Source of the DNA: Acidobacteriota bacterium | GTDB lineage: Bacteria > Acidobacteriota > Terriglobia > Terriglobales > Acidobacteriaceae | DNA: 64,000 nt | Assembly: GCA_013289685.1 (NCBI GenBank) | Contig: JABCZL010000003.1 | Span: 310,001-374,000, forward strand | Direction: 5' to 3' | Part shown: positions 34,324-43,165 of the stretch, in pieces | How positions within the stretch are numbered: position 1 is the first letter of the stretch | Layout: the number at the start of each line of letters is the position of its first letter | Made by a program: the position numbers and the translations under genes | Notes under the pieces: generated by a model | What the model was told of the DNA's origin: nothing | Database searches by the model: none | What the model saw: only the letters and a program-made list of their open reading frames with translations

Positions 34324-35520
34324 ATGCAGATCAGCACCGCGGCTACGGCCAAACGCACATTGTTTCGCTACGGGCTCGCGATCGGTCTCATCTTCCTTGC
34401 TCTATTGGTGTCCTTGGCGCTGCAAAACTCTTTTGGCAACCCTTTTTGGTTTTTCTTCTCTGCAGCAGTGATCCTCAGCACTTGGTTCGGCGGAGCGGGT
34501 CCCGGCTGGCTTGCTGTTATTTGTAGCACGCTCGCAGTGATGTACTACTTCACGCCACCGCTGCGTAGCTTGGCGGTAACGCCCCACGATCTGCCCTACT
34601 TTGTGACGTTCGTTGCGTGTGAAATGGGAGTGACCCAGCTGATTTCTTGGCGAAAACGCAGCGAAGATTCAATTCGACAGGCTCGTGACGAGCTTGAAGT
34701 GAGAGTTGCGGAGCGAACGGCCGAGCTCAAGAATGCAAACGATGCACTTGTGAGACAGATGGCGGAGCAGAGGCGTACAGAGGAGACGCTGCAGGCCACG
34801 CGCGCAGAATTGGCTCGCGCCGCACGAATCACTACCATCGGCGAATTGACAGCGTCGATAGCACACGAAGTCAACCAACCGCTCGCGGCAGTGGTGGCAA
34901 ACGCAGATGCCTGTGTCGCATGGCTATCTCGGAAAATGCCGGATCTTGCTGAAGCACGATCCGCAGCAGAGCGCGCCACACAGGGCGCTACGCGCGCGGC
35001 AGAAGTCATTGCCCGAATTCGTTCCCTCATCACCAAGGCTACACCAGAGAAATCCCGCGTCCCGCTTAACCGAGTCATAGAGCAAATCGCTGCTCTCGCC
35101 GAAGGGCAAGCAGAGAGGAACCATGTGGCCATTAAACTCGAACTCTCGCCGGACTTACCTATCGTATTGTGCGATAGCATCCAATTGCAGCAGGTAATCT
35201 TGAATCTGATCGTGAACGGAATCGAAGCGACGACATCTGTTACTGATCGGCCGAGAATGCTGACTCTTCGTACTGAAGCAGAGGACAAAGGCCAGGTTCG
35301 AGTTTCCGTTCGGGACTCCGGTGTTGGGCTGAACGAGGAAGTCATGGGCCGATTATTCGAGCCCTTCTTCACGACTCGTCCGAAGGGAATGGGTATGGGA
35401 CTGTCGATCAGTCGCTCGATTATTGAAGCTCACGGTGGGCGATTGTGGGCAGAGTCCAACACCTCGGGTGGAGCGACATTCCAGTTCACCCTGCCGAGTG
35501 AGGATGGGCTGACCGCATGA
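34324..35520 (+). CDS. DUF4118-type membrane sensor histidine kinase (FixL/NodV-like)
   Basis: This 398-residue kinase has N-terminal hydrophobic segments of the DUF4118/KdpD-like type (about residues 14-95) and a coiled linker (DELEVRVAERTAELKNANDA). The HisKA domain carries His181 in TASIAHEVNQPLAAVVANADA, and the ATPase domain has NLIVNGIEA and GMGMGLSISRSI. It lacks a haem-PAS domain, so oxygen sensing is not implied. It overlaps the FixJ-type regulator by 4 nt. The block belongs to the region bounded by the tRNA sites. Confidence 0.9.
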   Translation: MQISTAATAKRTLFRYGLAIGLIFLALLVSLALQNSFGNPFWFFFSAAVILSTWFGGAGPGWLAVICSTLAVMYYFTPPLRSLAVTPHDLPYFVTFVACEMGVTQLISWRKRSEDSIRQARDELEVRVAERTAELKNANDALVRQMAEQRRTEETLQATRAELARAARITTIGELTASIAHEVNQPLAAVVANADACVAWLSRKMPDLAEARSAAERATQGATRAAEVIARIRSLITKATPEKSRVPLNRVIEQIAALAEGQAERNHVAIKLELSPDLPIVLCDSIQLQQVILNLIVNGIEATTSVTDRPRMLTLRTEAEDKGQVRVSVRDSGVGLNEEVMGRLFEPFFTTRPKGMGMGLSISRSIIEAHGGRLWAESNTSGGATFQFTLPSEDGLTA

Positions 35521-36140
35521 AAGAGCCGGAGCCGGTGGTGTTCGTCATCGATGACGATCGCATGATTCGCGATGGGCTCCAAAGTCTGATCCGATCTGTC
35601 GGACTGCGGGTCGAAACGTTCGCCTCAGCCCAGGAATTTCTAGTTGCGAAGCGCCCAGACGCGCCAGCCTGTCTTGTTCTGGATGTCAGAATGCCGGAGC
35701 TTAGCGGCCTCGATCTTCAATTGAAGTTGAGAGATGGAGGCATCCCGATTCCAATCATCTTCATTACCGGACACGGGGACATTCCCATGTCCGTGCGCGC
35801 GATGAAAGAAGGAGCCCACGAGTTTCTGACGAAACCTGTTCGCGGCCAGGATCTGCTCGATGCAGTTCAGAAGGCACTGGCCAGCGACCGAACCCTCCGC
35901 CAGGAACGCAAGGAAGCCAACGAAATCCGTGGGCGATTCGAGTCCCTTACGCCGCGAGAGAAGGAAGTACTTGAACTGGTGGTTGCTGGCCTTCTGAACA
36001 AGCAGATTGCCGCTCAACTAGGAATGAGCGAGCTAACGGTTAAGACTCATCGTGCTCATGTAATGGAAAAAACCCAAGCCGAATCCCTAGCCCACCTTGT
36101 CCGCATGTCTGAGAAGCTCAAGAGCGTCTCTCGAAAGTAG
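35517..36140 (+). CDS. FixJ-family response regulator
   Basis: This 207-residue regulator has a receiver with Asp56 in CLVLDVRMPELSG, ITGHGDIPMSVRAMKEGA, and Lys in FLTKPVRG, all typical of FixJ/NodW. A LuxR-type DNA-binding domain follows (LTPREKEVLELVVAGLLNKQ, LTVKTHRAHVMEK). It is translationally coupled to the kinase upstream. The targets are not known; nearby genes are candidates. Confidence 0.93.
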   Translation: MKEPEPVVFVIDDDRMIRDGLQSLIRSVGLRVETFASAQEFLVAKRPDAPACLVLDVRMPELSGLDLQLKLRDGGIPIPIIFITGHGDIPMSVRAMKEGAHEFLTKPVRGQDLLDAVQKALASDRTLRQERKEANEIRGRFESLTPREKEVLELVVAGLLNKQIAAQLGMSELTVKTHRAHVMEKTQAESLAHLVRMSEKLKSVSRK

Positions 36141-36261
36141 GGACCTTTCTCCTCCTAAAGCAGTAGAGTTTTCAAGACAAAGCAGGATGGTTTTCAAGTC
36201 GCCCGGTTGGTAGTCTCATGCTCGCGACAGATCAAACCCGTCGCAGACTGGGTGAACCGAA

Positions 36262-36663
36262 GTGGGTGAGACTCTAACTGACGCTGGCATCATCGCAATT
36301 GTGGACGATGATGAGCCCCTGCGCGAAGCGCTGGGAAGCGTGATGAAGGCGGCCGGCTTTTCTCCCAGAACGTTTGCTTCGGCTGAGGAATTTCTCGCTT
36401 GTAACGATTGCGATGACACAGTCTGCCTGATACTCGACGTACGCCTGCCGGGCATGAGTGGGATCGAGTTGCAGAAGCGGTTGAGCAAGACGAATAGCCG
36501 GCTTCCCATCGTTTTCGTAACTGCCCACGGCGATGCCACGCTTCGAGACTCAGTGATGCGAGCCGGAGCCGCCGCTTTTCTGTATAAGCCGGTTCGGAGC
36601 GACGCATTGCTAAAAGAGATTCGCAGGGCACTGGAACAAGGTAGCGCCAACAACCAACTGTGA
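36262..36663 (+). CDS. Single-domain receiver protein (FixJ-type, no output domain)
   Basis: This is a 133-residue receiver domain alone. Asp59 sits in CLILDVRLPGMSG, with VTAHGDATL and YKPVRSDALL. It starts at GTG 36262. It has no DNA-binding domain and ends 12 nt before a sigma-54 activator that itself lacks a receiver. The two genes look like the split halves of an NtrC-type regulator, with the receiver perhaps regulating the ATPase in trans. Confidence 0.85.
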   Translation: MGETLTDAGIIAIVDDDEPLREALGSVMKAAGFSPRTFASAEEFLACNDCDDTVCLILDVRLPGMSGIELQKRLSKTNSRLPIVFVTAHGDATLRDSVMRAGAAAFLYKPVRSDALLKEIRRALEQGSANNQL

Positions 36664-36675
36664 AAGGGAGTAGCT

Positions 36676-37764
36676 ATGGCTTCCGCGTACCCGCTAAGGA
36701 CGGCTGACGAAACCACAGCGAGTTTCGCGCGACTGGCGCAATCTCGTGCCGACGCGACGAACGAAATCGTGGGGGAAAGTCCGCTGCTGCAATCCCTATT
36801 GCAACAGGTAGGGCTCGTCGCGCCGACAGACTCCACAGTTCTGATTCTGGGGGAGACGGGCACCGGGAAGGAACTGATCGCGCGTGCCATTCACCGGTTC
36901 TCCAACCGGTCGTCACGTCCATTCATCCGTGTGAACTGCGCGGCGATTCCACCTTCCCTGATCGCGTCCGAGTTATTCGGACACGAAAGAGGGGCGTTTA
37001 CCGGAGCGCTGCAGCGGCGGCAGGGACGTTTTGAGGCGGCCAACGGGGGAACGATCTTTCTCGATGAGATCGGCGAGTTGCCCATGGAAACCCAGATCAC
37101 TCTCCTCCGCGTGATTCAGGAGAGAGAATTTGAACGCGTTGGCAGTAGCCAGCCGATCCCCGTGGATGTTCGCATCATAGCGGCCACGAACCGCGACCTA
37201 GAAGCGGCCGTGGCGGATCGTACATTTCGCTCGGACATGTTTTACCGGCTGAATGTTTTTCCGATTCATGTCCCCGCCTTGAGAGAACGCCTGGAAGATA
37301 TCCCGCTACTGGTGGAGCATCTGATCGAACGTTTCGCCAAGAGAGTGGGCAAAGCATTTCGCACGATCAAGATGAATACGATCGAGACCCTGCAAGCCTA
37401 CGATTGGCCAGGCAACATTCGTGAACTACAGAATGTAATCGAAAGATCCGTCATTTTGGCCGAGGGCGATGTCTTCTCGATCGACGAGGGGTGGGTAAAA
37501 CGCGGTCTTCGGCGGCCGCGCCCGACGGCTCCACTTATCAGCTCCATTGCCGAGCGGGAGCGAGAGATGATCGAGGCTGCGCTCGCGGAAAGTGAAGGGC
37601 GCATTTCAGGACCGTCGGGAGCTGCTGCGAAGCTGGGGATCCCGCGTCAGACTCTGGACTCGAAAATCGCGAGCCTACAAATCAACAAACTGCGTTTCAA
37701 ATCGCGCCGAAACGGAATGCTTGCCATGCCGCAGGTTAATACGGGTGACGTCGATGTCGACTAA
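36676..37764 (+). CDS. Sigma-54-dependent AAA+ activator without receiver domain
   Basis: This 362-residue enhancer-binding ATPase has Walker A GETGTGKE (59-66), the sigma-54-contacting GAFTGA loop (106-111), Walker B TIFLDE (126-131), IIAATNRDLE, and the AAA+ sensor region FRSDMFYRLNVFPI. A C-terminal Fis-type helix-turn-helix follows (GAAAKLGIPRQTLDSKI). There is no N-terminal regulatory domain. An AAAGGGAG precedes the ATG. It is adjacent to the single receiver protein, which may supply control. No sigma-54 promoter was identified with confidence nearby. Confidence 0.92.
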   Translation: MASAYPLRTADETTASFARLAQSRADATNEIVGESPLLQSLLQQVGLVAPTDSTVLILGETGTGKELIARAIHRFSNRSSRPFIRVNCAAIPPSLIASELFGHERGAFTGALQRRQGRFEAANGGTIFLDEIGELPMETQITLLRVIQEREFERVGSSQPIPVDVRIIAATNRDLEAAVADRTFRSDMFYRLNVFPIHVPALRERLEDIPLLVEHLIERFAKRVGKAFRTIKMNTIETLQAYDWPGNIRELQNVIERSVILAEGDVFSIDEGWVKRGLRRPRPTAPLISSIAEREREMIEAALAESEGRISGPSGAAAKLGIPRQTLDSKIASLQINKLRFKSRRNGMLAMPQVNTGDVDVD

Positions 37765-37909
37765 CGCAATTGATTGCGGCATCGCTCTCGTGTCTCTCGT
37801 GGTCCTGATGTTCATCCTCAACCGGCTGGGGTTGATTGCGTGGTTTACGTGGATCAGTCGCCGCAAGGACCCGAATCAAGGTTCTTCCGCCAGGAGATCG
37901 CTGGAATGA
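37754..37909 (+). CDS. Small single-span membrane protein, unknown
   Basis: This 51-residue frame from ATG 37754 overlaps the end of the AAA+ gene by 11 nt. It has one hydrophobic helix ([20 protein letters not shown]) followed by a basic tail, as expected for a membrane microprotein. No homologue is recognised. The overlap with the decayed glucosidase downstream means it could also be a chance frame. Confidence 0.4.
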
Positions 37910-39406
37910 AGACGGATTGGCCGGGATCAGCGATCGCCGACAGATGATTTGCTTTGCCCTCGCGCTGTGGAACGAACGTGATCCGATTTTAAAAGAACGG
38001 ATTTTCGGTCTAACTGGAGACGAAGGTAATCACGGCGAGGACGTGAAGGAATACTACTTCTATCTTGACAGCACGCCTTCGCACTCCTACATGAAGTACC
38101 TCTACAAGTACCCCCAAGCAGAGTTTCCTTACGCGGAGTTGGCCGAGGAAAACCGACGGCGCGACAAGGGCCAAGCGGAATTCGAACTGCTCGATACCGG
38201 TGTATTCGGCGAAGATCGTTACTTCGACGTGTTCGTGGAATATGCCAAGACCGATGTCGAGGACATTCTGATCAAGGTCACGGTCGCAAACCGTGGCCCG
38301 GAAGCCGCCAATCTTCGGGTTCTGCCTACAGTTTGGTTCCGCAATACGTGGTCATGGGGAAACCGCGCCCGACGCCCGAAGCTGCACCAGGCGCGCTCCG
38401 CTCCCAACCCCGTCATCGAACTGAATCTTTCTCCAGTGAACCAAACTCAGCCCAATACCCGCTGGCTCCATTGTGAAGGCTCTCCGGAACTTCTCTTTAC
38501 CGAGAACGAGACGAACGCTCGACGGCTATTTGGAACCGAGAATCGCTCTCCCTTCGTCAAAGACGGCAGCAACGACCATGTCGTGCACGGTATCAAGGAA
38601 GCGGTCAATCCCGAACGTTGGCTCCAAAGCAGCCGCCCATTACAAACTGTCACTCGATTCGGGAGAGACAGTTGTAATAAGGATGCGACTTGCCGACTCG
38701 GACTTCAAACGAACGGGCGCGTTTGCCAGCTTCGACGAAACGTTCGCGCTCCGGCGACGTGAGGCCGATGAATTTTACGCAACGGTCATTCCTGGGGATC
38801 TTTCCGCAGACGCCCAGAACGTAATGCGCCAGGGTTTTGCGGGGATGCTCTGGTCCAAGCAGTTCTATCATTACGTCATCACGGATTGGCTGCGAGGCGA
38901 CCCGGATAACCCACGCCCACCCCAGGAGCGAAGGAAAGGGCGCAACCATCAATGGACTCACTTGTACAACGCTGACGTAATTTCCATGCCAGACAAATGG
39001 GAGTATCCGTGGTATGCCACTTGGGACCTGGCGTTCCACTGCATCCCGCTCGCCCTGGTCGACCCCGACTTCGCAAAAGAGCAGCTTGCGCTGATGCTCC
39101 GCGAGTGGTACATGCACCCCAACGGGCAAATACCCGCTTATGAATGGGCTCTGGGGGACGTTAATCCGCCCGTGCATGCATGGGCCGCATCCTCATTGGC
39201 GCGACTTGCTTCTCTTTCACGAGTACTTCCACGGCGACTCCGGTTCCGGGGTGGGTGCGAGTCATCAAACCGGATGGACCGGCGTGGTCACTAAGCTAAT
39301 GCAACAAAGCGGCGAATTTCGCGAACGCAAGAAAAGTGAGTCAGAGGCCGTCACTGCACCGGCGAGCGGAATTGAATTGTGGGACGGCGCTTCCGTACCT
39401 ACCTAG
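37895..39406 (+). pseudogene. Decayed MGH1-like glucosidase (GH63-type) pseudogene
   Basis: Three frames carry consecutive pieces of one large glycosidase. The first (37895 to about 38615) reads [32 protein letters not shown] and [21 protein letters not shown]. Near 38611-38622 the frame changes by one base. The second part continues with [30 protein letters not shown] and [20 protein letters not shown] to about 39186. The third frame resumes with [20 protein letters not shown], the usual C-terminal end. The N-terminal start and several hundred internal residues are missing. The gene is clearly non-functional. Confidence 0.85.
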
Positions 39407-39811: not shown

Positions 39812-40513
39812 ATGAAGATCACGACGACGTGCGAGGTTTCCATGAATTGCAAACAGAAGTTCGCAGCGGACAAGCAAGATTCTTTGAGCAGCAATCGCGC
39901 AGCTAGTGAAATCGACACGAATGGTTCGGGGCACAGAATTCCGCACTCGGCGGCCCTTGAAGAGATTTGGCGAACTCATGCCAAGCAGATTCTTCGCATC
40001 ACGCAGCGAATTACGAACAATCGGGAGGACGCCGAGGATGCGCTGCAGGACTCATTCCTGCGAGCCCATGTTCACCTCCATGATTTTGAAGGCCGCTCCA
40101 GTATCGGGACTTGGCTGACGCGGATCGCGATCAATTCGGCGCTCTTGATCCTTCGCAAGCGGGCGGGCGCCGCACATGTTTCCATCGATAATGTGGGGGC
40201 CTCCGGCACCGAAGGTCTCACGCTAATTCCTGCCGACCGCGCGCCGAGCCCCGAGGCGCAGTACGCGGATCTGGAGCAGCAGGCGCTGGTCAAATCGGCG
40301 ATCGCGACAGTACGGCCTTCAATCCGCCGGGCTCTCGAACTCCGAGCGCTGGAAGAACGGTCGGCCAAAGAAATAGCCGACAGCATGGGCGTCTCCGTCT
40401 CTGCCGCCAAGTCCCGACTTTTTCACGCCAGAACTGCCGTGCGGAAGGCGATGGACGCGAAAGTCAACCGCCGCTCCCGCGCAACCGAAGGGCTTCAACT
40501 ATCGGCGGCGTAA
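39812..40513 (+). CDS. ECF-type RNA polymerase sigma factor
   Basis: This 233-residue sigma-70 family protein has region 2 (ILRITQRITNNREDAEDALQ, FLRAHVHLHDFEG, IGTWLTRIAINSALLILRKR) and region 4 (PSIRRALELRALEERSAKEI, ADSMGVSVSAAKSRLFHAR). A second in-frame ATG at 39842 has GAGG at a good distance and may be the true start. No anti-sigma factor gene is adjacent. It lies 30 nt upstream of a sortase and its LPETG substrate, so it probably drives that cassette. Confidence 0.92.
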   Translation: MKITTTCEVSMNCKQKFAADKQDSLSSNRAASEIDTNGSGHRIPHSAALEEIWRTHAKQILRITQRITNNREDAEDALQDSFLRAHVHLHDFEGRSSIGTWLTRIAINSALLILRKRAGAAHVSIDNVGASGTEGLTLIPADRAPSPEAQYADLEQQALVKSAIATVRPSIRRALELRALEERSAKEIADSMGVSVSAAKSRLFHARTAVRKAMDAKVNRRSRATEGLQLSAA

Positions 40514-40543
40514 GCGGGAAATCGATGCCCGGAGCAGACGATC

Positions 40544-41269
40544 ATGTGGAGATCTCAAAAGTCGGTCGGCGATAAGGACGGAGCCCCAGGTCGCAAGCGA
40601 ACGGCTCTGATATGGATCGAACGAGTTCTGCTTGTGTCAGGGCTGGCTCTGGTCGGCTTGTACGGTGCAGCCCGCATGGAAAGCTGGCTCACGTCTCGCG
40701 CGGCACTCGGGCACTTTGCGGCAGACGAGGCATTAGCTCAGCTGGGCAATGAGAGCGATTTGGACAACGTCCCCTCGGGTGTCGACAGGGATTCTTCCGA
40801 GCAACTCGAACTACCCGGTGTCGACTTCAGGCTTTGGGGCGAACGGCGGGTTAAGGCCTACAGGCAGAACATTGACAAACATCCTGAAACTGCACTGGCG
40901 GTGCTGCGGATTCCCAGGATTTCTCTTGAGGCCCCGCTGTTCGACGGAACCGACGATTTGACTTTGAACCACGCAGTCGGACGGATTGCGGGTACGTCCC
41001 GCCCCGGTGAGCCCGGCAACATCGGCATCGCCGGCCATCGGGACGGGTTTTTCCGCGGACTTAAAGATGTACGCGTCGGTGACGCCATCGAACTGAAGAC
41101 GCTGAAGGGAACGGACACTTACATCGTAGATCAAATCCAGATTGTCTCGCCGCGCCAGGTGGAAGTGCTACGGCCGACATCCGTTTCTTCACTCACGCTG
41201 GTCACCTGCTACCCGTTCTATTTCTTCGGCAGCGCACCGCAACGCTACATTGTAACGGCTTCTCTCTGA
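40544..41269 (+). CDS. Class D-type sortase
   Basis: Sortases are membrane transpeptidases that cut LPXTG-like signals and attach proteins to an amino acceptor. This 241-residue protein has an N-terminal membrane anchor (about 22-42) and a sortase core with His165 in GIAGHRDGFFRGL, Cys222 in LTLVTCYPFYFFGS and Arg234 in APQRYIV; all three catalytic residues are present. The wording fits class D. Its partner with an LPETG signal is the next gene, 78 nt downstream. Sortases are rare in diderm bacteria, so the acceptor here is unknown. Confidence 0.9.
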   Translation: MWRSQKSVGDKDGAPGRKRTALIWIERVLLVSGLALVGLYGAARMESWLTSRAALGHFAADEALAQLGNESDLDNVPSGVDRDSSEQLELPGVDFRLWGERRVKAYRQNIDKHPETALAVLRIPRISLEAPLFDGTDDLTLNHAVGRIAGTSRPGEPGNIGIAGHRDGFFRGLKDVRVGDAIELKTLKGTDTYIVDQIQIVSPRQVEVLRPTSVSSLTLVTCYPFYFFGSAPQRYIVTASL

Positions 41270-41347
41270 CAAGAGAAAAACGGCGAACCTGAGAACTCGA
41301 ATCTCGGCGCGCCGGCAACTGCAGATACTTCAACAAGGAGAAAACGC

Positions 41348-42124
41348 ATGAACCTCTTCAAAAAAGCAACCCTCATGAACAAGGGAGCCAGCGCGATCGT
41401 TTTGGCCTTCGTGGCCCTCGGAACGGCTTGGGCACAGGACTCAACCGTGACAACAGTTCAGCATGGACCATCCTCGTTCGACAATCAGGTGAAGAATGCG
41501 GAAGTAGTTTACGTATCAGGTAACGATCTGGTGCTCAAGCTGGAAGACGGCCGTGTCGAGCACATGGTTGTGCCTGACAGCGACAAATTTACCATCGATG
41601 GGAAAGAGGTCACTGTGCACGAACTCGTACCCGGAACGAAGTTGACTCAAACCATTACCACCACCACCACGCCGCGTTATGTCAACTCGGTCAGAACGAT
41701 TGAGGGCAAGGTGTGGCATGTGAATGCGCCCAAATCCGTGATCCTGACTCTTCCCGACAATACCAACCAGGTTTACAACGTTCCCAATCACGCCAAGTTC
41801 GTCATCGAAGGTCGGCAGAAGACGGTGTTTGATTTGAGGAAAGGAATGAAGATCAAGGCCACGATCGTTACCGACGATGAGCATACGGTAGTCGAGCAAA
41901 GCAAATTCGCTTTCGGTCAAGCGCCGTCGCAAACTCCGCGTGAAGTTGGAGTTCTATTGTTCCTTGCTCCAACGCAGCCTCAGGTCACGTTGGCCAGCGC
42001 AGAGCAGCCCGCAGAAATGCTCCCAGAAACGGGTAGTTCGCTCCCGCTGGTGGGATTGATGGGCACATTGGCAATCGCAATGTCGCTCGGGCTGTGGGCC
42101 GTTCGACGGACCCGCACGATCTGA
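41348..42124 (+). CDS. LPXTG-anchored exported protein, candidate sortase substrate
   Basis: This 258-residue protein has a signal peptide (SAIVLAFVALGTAWAQ), two related beta-rich repeats (VYVSGNDLVLKLEDGRVEHM and GKVWHVNAPKSVILTLPDNT), then a C-terminal sorting signal. LPETG occupies residues 225-229, followed by a hydrophobic helix and the basic tail RRTRTI. That is a complete cell-wall sorting signal. AAGGAG precedes ATG 41348. It is followed by a terminator, which ends the sigma-sortase-substrate unit. The function of the exported domain is unknown. Confidence 0.88.
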   Translation: MNLFKKATLMNKGASAIVLAFVALGTAWAQDSTVTTVQHGPSSFDNQVKNAEVVYVSGNDLVLKLEDGRVEHMVVPDSDKFTIDGKEVTVHELVPGTKLTQTITTTTTPRYVNSVRTIEGKVWHVNAPKSVILTLPDNTNQVYNVPNHAKFVIEGRQKTVFDLRKGMKIKATIVTDDEHTVVEQSKFAFGQAPSQTPREVGVLLFLAPTQPQVTLASAEQPAEMLPETGSSLPLVGLMGTLAIAMSLGLWAVRRTRTI

Positions 42125-42136
42125 TGTTTGACGAAC

Positions 42137-42175
42137 GGCCCGTCCGGTGGCGATTGAGCGGGGCGGGCCTTCTTT
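42137..42175 (+). terminator. Rho-independent terminator of the sortase cassette
   Basis: A nine-pair stem with one G-T pair (42137-42145 with 42161-42169) is followed by TTCTTT, 12 nt after the LPETG gene. Confidence 0.8.
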
Positions 42176-42225
42176 ACTAAGCAAGGATGACCAAAGAGCT
42201 AGACAACAGCAAAAGGAGATGTACT

Positions 42226-43042: not shown

Positions 43043-43070
43043 AACGCCGACCCCGCAAGCGGTCGGCGTT
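43043..43070. terminator. Hairpin downstream of the SDR gene
   Basis: AACGCCGACC (43043-43052) and GGTCGGCGTT (43061-43070) form a perfect 10-bp stem with an 8-nt loop. No T-run follows on the plus strand; a T-rich stretch follows on the minus strand. Confidence 0.45.
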
Positions 43071-43165
43071 CGTGACCTAAGGAAAGAAATGAAGGTCAAG
43101 GCAACAGTCGTCACCGATGGCTAACATACCGTGATCAAGCAGACTAAAACTGGCCTTCCGCCAGT
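43057..43165 (+). pseudogene. Fragment related to the LPXTG protein
   Basis: One frame reads VRDLRKEMKVKATVVTDG, a stop codon, then HTVIKQTKTG. This matches VFDLRKGMKIKATIVTDD-EHTVVEQSKF in the LPETG protein (about residues 160-188) residue by residue. Only this piece is present, interrupted by a stop, with no signal peptide or sorting tail. It is the remnant of a second, decayed paralogue. Confidence 0.7.

What the first reader, a model, noticed from the sequence alone, without database searches (positions are those of the whole stretch)
39812..42175. ECF sigma factor - class D sortase - LPETG substrate cassette in a likely diderm bacterium
Three consecutive genes make a complete, terminator-closed unit: an ECF sigma factor, a sortase with all three catalytic residues (His165, Cys222, Arg234), and an exported protein ending in LPETG, a hydrophobic helix and a basic tail. 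LPXTG sorting is established for monoderm bacteria and known only sporadically in diderms. The window's other genes (TonB, Tat, PEP-CTERM, AMIN) point to a diderm host. What the sortase attaches the protein to, and whether the sigma factor senses its success, is open. No anti-sigma gene is adjacent.
Basis: partly seen in the sequence, partly recalled or inferred. Interest (0 to 1): 0.78.

Follow-up and report, generated by a model that had tools for sequence, protein, structure and literature searches.

The report
Dedicated sortase-substrate pair in Acidobacteria
A bacterium with two membranes carries an enzyme and, right beside it, the one exported protein the enzyme probably cuts and anchors; such pairs recur in its group, so the pair looks like a real system, while the regulator next to it is a rare local addition.

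Summary
The three genes are real: ECF sigma factor (39812-40513), sortase with His165/Cys222/Arg234 (40544-41269), exported LPETG-tail protein (41348-42124), in a diderm acidobacterium (LpxC present). The sortase-substrate pair is the conserved unit: strict LPxT tails lie within 2.5 kb of the sortase at 116 of 174 loci, against 1 of 3,234 ORFs farther off, itself a substrate. Substrate type follows the sortase tree (27 changes; 110 when shuffled). Pairs occur in Acidobacteriota, Proteobacteria and Myxococcota. The ECF gene does not belong to that unit: it lies directly upstream in 2 of 43 window-type loci. No NCBIfam class cut-off is reached (class D nearest; class GN failed). The signal is LPxT[A/G]SxLPLxGLLG. 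Some lineages lost its Thr; where Ala or Gly replaces it, the sortase residue two before the catalytic His is Ser/Thr in 22 of 23 loci, otherwise mostly Ala. That residue faces the Thr in a published structure; independent origins are few and the refined reading is post hoc. Most likely a dedicated class-D-like periplasmic sortase anchoring one protein to peptidoglycan; the acceptor is inferred. New variant of a known kind.

The parts
39812..40513 (+). ECF sigma factor (regions 2 and 4); 30 bases before the sortase gene
   Evidence: this adjacency seen otherwise only in L150
40544..41269 (+). membrane-anchored class-D-like sortase, 241 aa
   Evidence: PF04203 98.4 bits; AF2 pLDDT 85.9, pTM 0.74; best PDB match Z 21.9
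41036..41038 (+). catalytic His165; Ala163, two residues before, is the co-varying position
41207..41209 (+). catalytic Cys222
41243..41245 (+). catalytic Arg234
41348..42124 (+). dedicated substrate: N-terminal signal peptide (read by eye), two repeated beta domains, linker, sorting tail
41477..41701 (+). substrate beta domain, first copy (residues 44-118)
   Evidence: profile match to second copy, prob 99.3, E 7.6e-21
41702..41935 (+). substrate beta domain, second copy (residues 119-196)
42020..42121 (+). sorting tail LPETGSSLPLVGLMG..., hydrophobic helix, basic end
   Evidence: TIGR01167 over cut-off; tail profile E 1.2e-10 (the window tail is one of the profile's 48 rows); helix in AF2 model
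42124..42185 (+). G+C-rich hairpin with T-rich end, possible terminator
   Evidence: not listed
43068..43148 (+). remnant of a second copy of part of the substrate's second domain, with an in-frame stop
   Evidence: score 94 against a maximum of 55 in 300 shuffles

Best explanation
The sortase and the tail protein form a dedicated enzyme-substrate pair of a diderm. The substrate leaves by Sec, stays in the inner membrane by its C-terminal helix, and the periplasmic sortase domain cleaves LPET|G (no assay of any member was seen; inferred from the conserved triad and signal). The acyl-enzyme is then resolved by an amine, most likely the meso-diaminopimelate side chain of lipid II or of the peptidoglycan stem, leaving the two beta domains fixed to peptidoglycan in the periplasm (inferred). 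The ECF sigma factor is a local regulatory addition shared with one other genome, not a component of the mechanism.
For: Pair linkage: strict tail gene within 2.5 kb at 116 of 174 loci vs 1 of 3,234 ORFs farther off. In 15 few-contig genomes, chosen by me from the 71 positives, 15 of 20 tails lie within about 1.6 kb of a sortase (coordinates; the tail profile holds tails from several of these genomes). Substrate type tracks sortase phylogeny: 27 changes vs a shuffled mean of 110, 0 of 200 as low. Window-type substrate domain matches the proteobacterial one (prob 96-97) and the Thermoanaerobaculia one (prob 97.9). Triad intact in nearly every aligned sortase. Diderm: LpxC 334 bits. Sortase residue 163 co-varies with the residue before the cut, the strongest of 125 columns; the same position (A140, two before catalytic H142) faces the methyl of the P1 Thr in the SpySrtA-LPATS complex (PMC9520033, passages).
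Against: No experiment on a member was seen. No call bears on the acceptor amine. 5 of 20 tails in the 15 genomes are not near a sortase found, and G028 has a sortase but no tail. 27 of 173 aligned sortases have no tail assigned. The pair is patchy: at E 1e-30, 21 same-genus genomes (the own one included) have a sortase match and at least 20 have none. Few independent origins of the co-variation and exceptions in later loci; in the published complex the methyl, not the hydroxyl, of Thr faces that residue.
Confidence: 0.6

Rival explanations
1. The sortase cuts its substrate but hands it to water or to another protein (release or polymerisation) instead of peptidoglycan.
For: Diderms have thin peptidoglycan (general knowledge); other enzymes process similar C-terminal tails in diderms (exosortase, rhombosortase: PMC1569441, PMC3237569, passages). 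The structural comparison ranks sortases of several classes, pilin sortases included, about equally (Z 18-22).
Against: In this genome each sortase has one tail protein beside it and no third tail was found; the Pfam scans of neighbours that I made showed no pilin domain.
Confidence: 0.27
2. The three genes form a sensing unit: the ECF factor is controlled by the state of the sortase or its substrate.
For: ECF gene directly upstream of the sortase in the window (30 bases between) and in L150 (24 bases), a different genus with a 46% identical ECF and conserved flanks.
Against: No ECF directly upstream in 41 of 43 window-type loci nor in 14 of 14 further ones, with a profile built from ECF genes near these sortases; shared flanking genes could carry the ECF along; no anti-sigma match in the neighbours scanned.
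Confidence: 0.08
3. It is an ordinary class D sortase system that merely scores below the class cut-offs.
For: Class D models score best (127.1 and 113.8 bits); the genome's second sortase passes the LPxTATN class D model (152.1 vs 140); the best PDB sequence match is 2ln7, a class D enzyme as I recall.
Against: Window sortase fails class D (113.8 vs 165) and LPxTATN class D (127.1 vs 140); its clade and substrate family differ from those of the second sortase.
Confidence: 0.35
4. A decaying local island with no function.
For: A substrate remnant (43068-43148) and a hydrolase-like gene that looks broken lie beside it.
Against: All three ORFs are intact, with invariant catalytic residues and an intact tail.
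Confidence: 0.04

Closest known systems
Class GN sortase with VIT/VWA target (TIGR03784/TIGR03788)
   Same: Dedicated sortase beside its LPXTG-type target in Gram-negatives (PMC3237569, passages)
   Different: Window sortase scores 79.9 vs 158.25 cut-off; substrate has repeated small beta domains, no VIT/VWA match. A true GN pair exists in the same family (L128: 174.7 and 624.3 bits); the four GN-type sortases form one clade
Class D sortase, LPxTATN type (NF058671; subfamily NF033746)
   Same: Best-scoring class; LPxTA-like signals; the genome's second sortase passes NF058671
   Different: Window sortase below both cut-offs; consensus signal LPxT[AG]SxLPL; substrate of another family than that of the second sortase
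Exosortase/PEP-CTERM and rhombosortase/GlyGly-CTERM
   Same: C-terminal tripartite sorting tails in diderms
   Different: Enzymes not related to sortases (PMC1569441, PMC3237569, passages)
Braun's lipoprotein anchored by L,D-transpeptidases
   Same: Covalent protein-peptidoglycan link in a diderm (PMC8263019, passages)
   Different: Different enzyme; here the link is only inferred

Membership tests
Sortase superfamily (PF04203) | Profile match over the curated cut-off | tested here: met
   98.4 vs 26.6 bits
Sortase superfamily (PF04203) | His-Cys-Arg triad | tested here: met
Sortase superfamily (PF04203) | Sortase beta-barrel fold | tested here: met
   AF2 model; Z 21.9, rmsd 1.1 over 124 residues to 3re9
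Sortase superfamily (PF04203) | Transpeptidase activity | not testable with these tools
   needs an enzyme assay
Class D sortase (NF033746; NF058671) | Score over the curated cut-off | tested here: not met
   113.8 vs 165; 127.1 vs 140
Class GN sortase (TIGR03784) | Score over the curated cut-off | tested here: not met
   79.9 vs 158.25
Class GN sortase (TIGR03784) | Adjacent VIT/VWA target (TIGR03788) | tested here: not met
   Substrate has no VIT/VWA match
LPXTG sorting signal (TIGR01167) | Score over the curated cut-off | tested here: met
   17.4 vs 15.9; Pfam PF00746 not reached, 13 vs 20
ECF sigma factor (TIGR02937) | Score over cut-off, regions 2 and 4 present | tested here: met
   85.8 vs 42.9; Pfam regions 2 and 4

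The most novel reading that the evidence does not exclude
Diderm bacteria have a broad family of dedicated sortases, each anchoring one periplasmic protein to peptidoglycan, sometimes a lipoprotein (L185, L206, L207), which would be a sortase-built counterpart of Braun's lipoprotein tether; enzyme and signal co-evolve, so that when the signal loses its Thr the sortase gains a Ser/Thr side chain at the position that faces it.
Probability: 0.22. Interest if true: 0.8.

Novelty: new variant of a known kind. Interest (0 to 1): 0.55.

Why it matters
It moves LPXTG sorting from a monoderm trait with a few diderm exceptions towards a recurrent, modular trait of Acidobacteriota and some Proteobacteria and Myxococcota, each enzyme with its own substrate. 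It makes an open question testable: what a sortase attaches proteins to inside a two-membrane envelope. The natural change of the residue before the cut, largely matched in the enzyme, is a ready-made specificity experiment and a lead for ligases with other recognition sequences.

Tried and rejected
Conserved ECF triplet: rejected. The genome has 30 sigma-70 region 2 matches, so chance adjacency is rare and the two upstream cases probably share one ancestral arrangement (inference); ECF genes also lie downstream of two type III sortases (L113, L133). Class by structure: not resolved, sortases of classes A, C, D and E all score Z 18-22. Substrate fold: the best Foldseek hits (ModE, PotA, MalK) have E 6.5e-4 or more but TM-scores of 0.17-0.20, so no fold is claimed; no Pfam family was convincing for the body in 28 members. 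PDB sequence search for the substrate: one match at E 0.86. A VWA gene next to window-type pairs: my profile had the L150 protein among its rows, so its hit there is circular, and Pfam found nothing in it; I keep only type II (18 of 30). The first version of the co-variation, any loss of Thr goes with Ser/Thr163, was weakened by loci with Ser before the cut and Ala163 (L180, L306, L311, L312) and by L304 (Ala before the cut, Ala163); the narrower Ala/Gly version was made after seeing these. V220 to Ile also ranks high, but most of the type III rows printed there have Ile too, so I do not count it. Literature: searches listed no title on acidobacterial sortase-substrate pairs; I opened five papers for passages only, and the library lacks most subscription journals.

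Full report
What is there. The window lies in a 6.85 Mb draft genome (48 contigs, 98.9% complete). Three ORFs on the + strand, 39812-40513, 40544-41269 and 41348-42124, encode an ECF sigma factor, a sortase and an exported protein with an LPETG tail. His165, Cys222 and Arg234 are the catalytic residues and are invariant in alignments of 16 and 40 sequences; they are present in 172, 173 and 172 of 173 aligned sortases. A hairpin follows the third gene, though the simple scan did not list it.

Host. The own genome has LpxC (334 bits), so it can make lipid A and is diderm (inference from that gene). The host is therefore an acidobacterium (inference).

Own genome. PF04203 finds two sortases: the window one and one at C10:11680-12045. 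Only two TIGR01167 matches pass the cut-off, one beside each sortase, and a profile of 48 tails, the two own ones among them, finds the same two and no others at E 0.1. The C10 cluster is substrate, VWA protein, sortase; its sortase passes the LPxTATN class D model (152.1 vs 140 bits), the window one does not (127.1).

Conservation of the pair. Sortase relatives occur in 71 of 200 same-family genomes and in 81 of 396 same-phylum genomes (another query and threshold). With the window and the C10 cluster this made 175 loci, 174 of them with a sortase ORF. A strict LPxT tail with hydrophobic helix and basic end was found within 2.5 kb of the sortase at 116 of 174 loci: 117 of 3,761 ORFs within 2.5 kb against 1 of 3,234 farther off. 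That one is the window-type substrate of L052, 4.9 kb from its sortase; one of the 117 is a short opposite-strand ORF in L193. The consensus is LPxT[A 65%, G 28%]SxLPLxGLLG. In 15 genomes chosen for few contigs (of the 71 positives), 15 of 20 tails lie within about 1.6 kb of a sortase; the others are G050:C8, G106:C2, G106:C11 and two in G004; G028 has a sortase and no tail. Within the genus the sortase is patchy: 21 genomes with a match at E 1e-30, the own one included, and at least 20 without.

Substrate types. By protein family the neighbours fall into types: I (window type, 43 loci), I-prime (30, Proteobacteria and Thermoanaerobaculia), II (30, C10 type), III (14), IV (27, usually no Thr in the signal, often with an FAD oxidase gene of Pfam DAO next to the sortase; some rows were put in IV by that oxidase alone), GN (4), two small groups (7) and 19 without a label. 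On a tree of 172 sortases the nine labels need 27 changes against a shuffled mean of 110, 0 of 200 as low; many forks of this 125-column tree are open and near-copies help clustering. The window substrate is a tandem duplication of a domain of about 70 residues (prob 99.3, E 7.6e-21), matching the single domain of I-prime substrates (prob 96-98). Substrates of types II, III and IV showed no such match to the window family. AlphaFold gives beta domains, a low-confidence linker and a C-terminal helix (pLDDT 84, pTM 0.48). The fold has no convincing PDB match.

The sigma factor. An ECF gene directly upstream of the sortase is present in the window (30 bases between) and in L150 (24 bases), 2 of 43 type I loci, and in 0 of 14 further type I loci. 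L150 belongs to another genus of the family (G611, g33). Its ECF is 46% identical, its substrate 54%, and the flanking response regulators (81%, 72%), sigma-54 activator (72%) and antiporter (77%) are shared, but the order is substrate, unnamed gene, ECF, sortase, antiporter. The link is thus old enough to be seen in two genera, and was not found in the other type I loci examined.

Enzyme-substrate co-variation. In 25 of the 146 loci with an assigned signal the residue before the cut (P1) is not Thr: 11 Ala, 9 Gly, 5 Ser. Sortase residue 163, two before the catalytic His, is Ser or Thr in 24 of these 25 and in 7 of 121 with Thr (Fisher p 3e-20, not corrected for kinship), the strongest of 125 columns. 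In the SpySrtA-LPATS structure the methyl of P1 Thr faces A140 and V206 (PMC9520033, passages); the catalytic residues there are H142 and C208, so A140 is the same position. It is the methyl, not the hydroxyl, that faces it, so a literal hydroxyl swap is only one reading. Phylogenetic support is thin: 5 changes of P1 on the tree, 3 independent pairs on well-supported branches, of which 2 agree and 1 does not differ (made without L180). Later loci: of 29 phylum loci, 18 have a Thr tail, 17 with Ala163 and one with Thr163 (L243); two of the 18 (L226, L229) repeat earlier loci, and 10 of the 29 had no readable tail. Of 40 further loci, 15 new ones have a Thr tail, all with Ala163. With Ala before the cut, L302 and L303 (the same locus as L235) have Thr163 and L304 has Ala163. 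With Ser before the cut, L306, L311 and L312 have Ala163. Summed: Ala or Gly, 22 of 23 with Ser/Thr163; Ser, 4 of 8. The narrower reading, that it is Ala or Gly that goes with Ser/Thr163, was made after seeing these data.

How it most likely works. Shown by computation: conserved pair, intact triad, sortase fold model, signal and enzyme that vary together, LpxC in the host. Inferred: periplasmic cleavage at LPET|G and transfer to an amine, most likely diaminopimelate of peptidoglycan precursors. No call bears directly on the acceptor.

Known context. [quoted passage not shown] What I did not find in print, within the eight searches named under Tried and rejected, is the widespread acidobacterial pair, its substrate family, its extended signal, or the co-variation.

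Noticed in passing
L185:5815-5922, L206:986-1093, L207:5771-5869 (tails) and their ORFs: Deltaproteobacteria/Myxococcota: 89-98 aa proteins 22-111 bases upstream of a sortase with a Cys after the N-terminal hydrophobic stretch (lipobox-like by eye), a Pro/Glu-rich linker and an LPKTAS tail; possible lipoproteins bound by sortase.
   Followed up: partly
L084-L137, type IV loci: 27 sortase loci in which the paired tail, where one was read, lacks Thr (LPx[A/G/S]..SxLPLLSVIG), except L115; many have a DAO-family FAD oxidase gene beside the sortase.
   Followed up: partly
window 43068-43148: Remnant of a second substrate copy with an in-frame stop, between the SDR gene and the antiporter.
   Followed up: yes
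window 37836-39406: Overlapping ORFs in different frames, one with a weak MGH1-like glycoside hydrolase match (24.3 bits, cut-off 27): looks like a broken hydrolase gene just upstream of the ECF gene.
   Followed up: partly
window 35517-37764 and type I loci: Receiver-domain ORFs lie within 4 kb of the sortase at 15 of 43 type I loci but 9 of 131 others.
   Followed up: no
L168:6819-8366 (same locus as L057), L063, L064: 439-516 aa proteins with LPQTASPLPL tails beside sortases of the window's clade; the L168 one has a PEGA domain (30.8 bits).
   Followed up: no
L003:10395-11456: Acidobacterial VWFA protein (TIGR03436, 219 bits) between substrate and sortase; a VWA gene lies within 2.5 kb at 18 of 30 type II loci.
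   Followed up: partly
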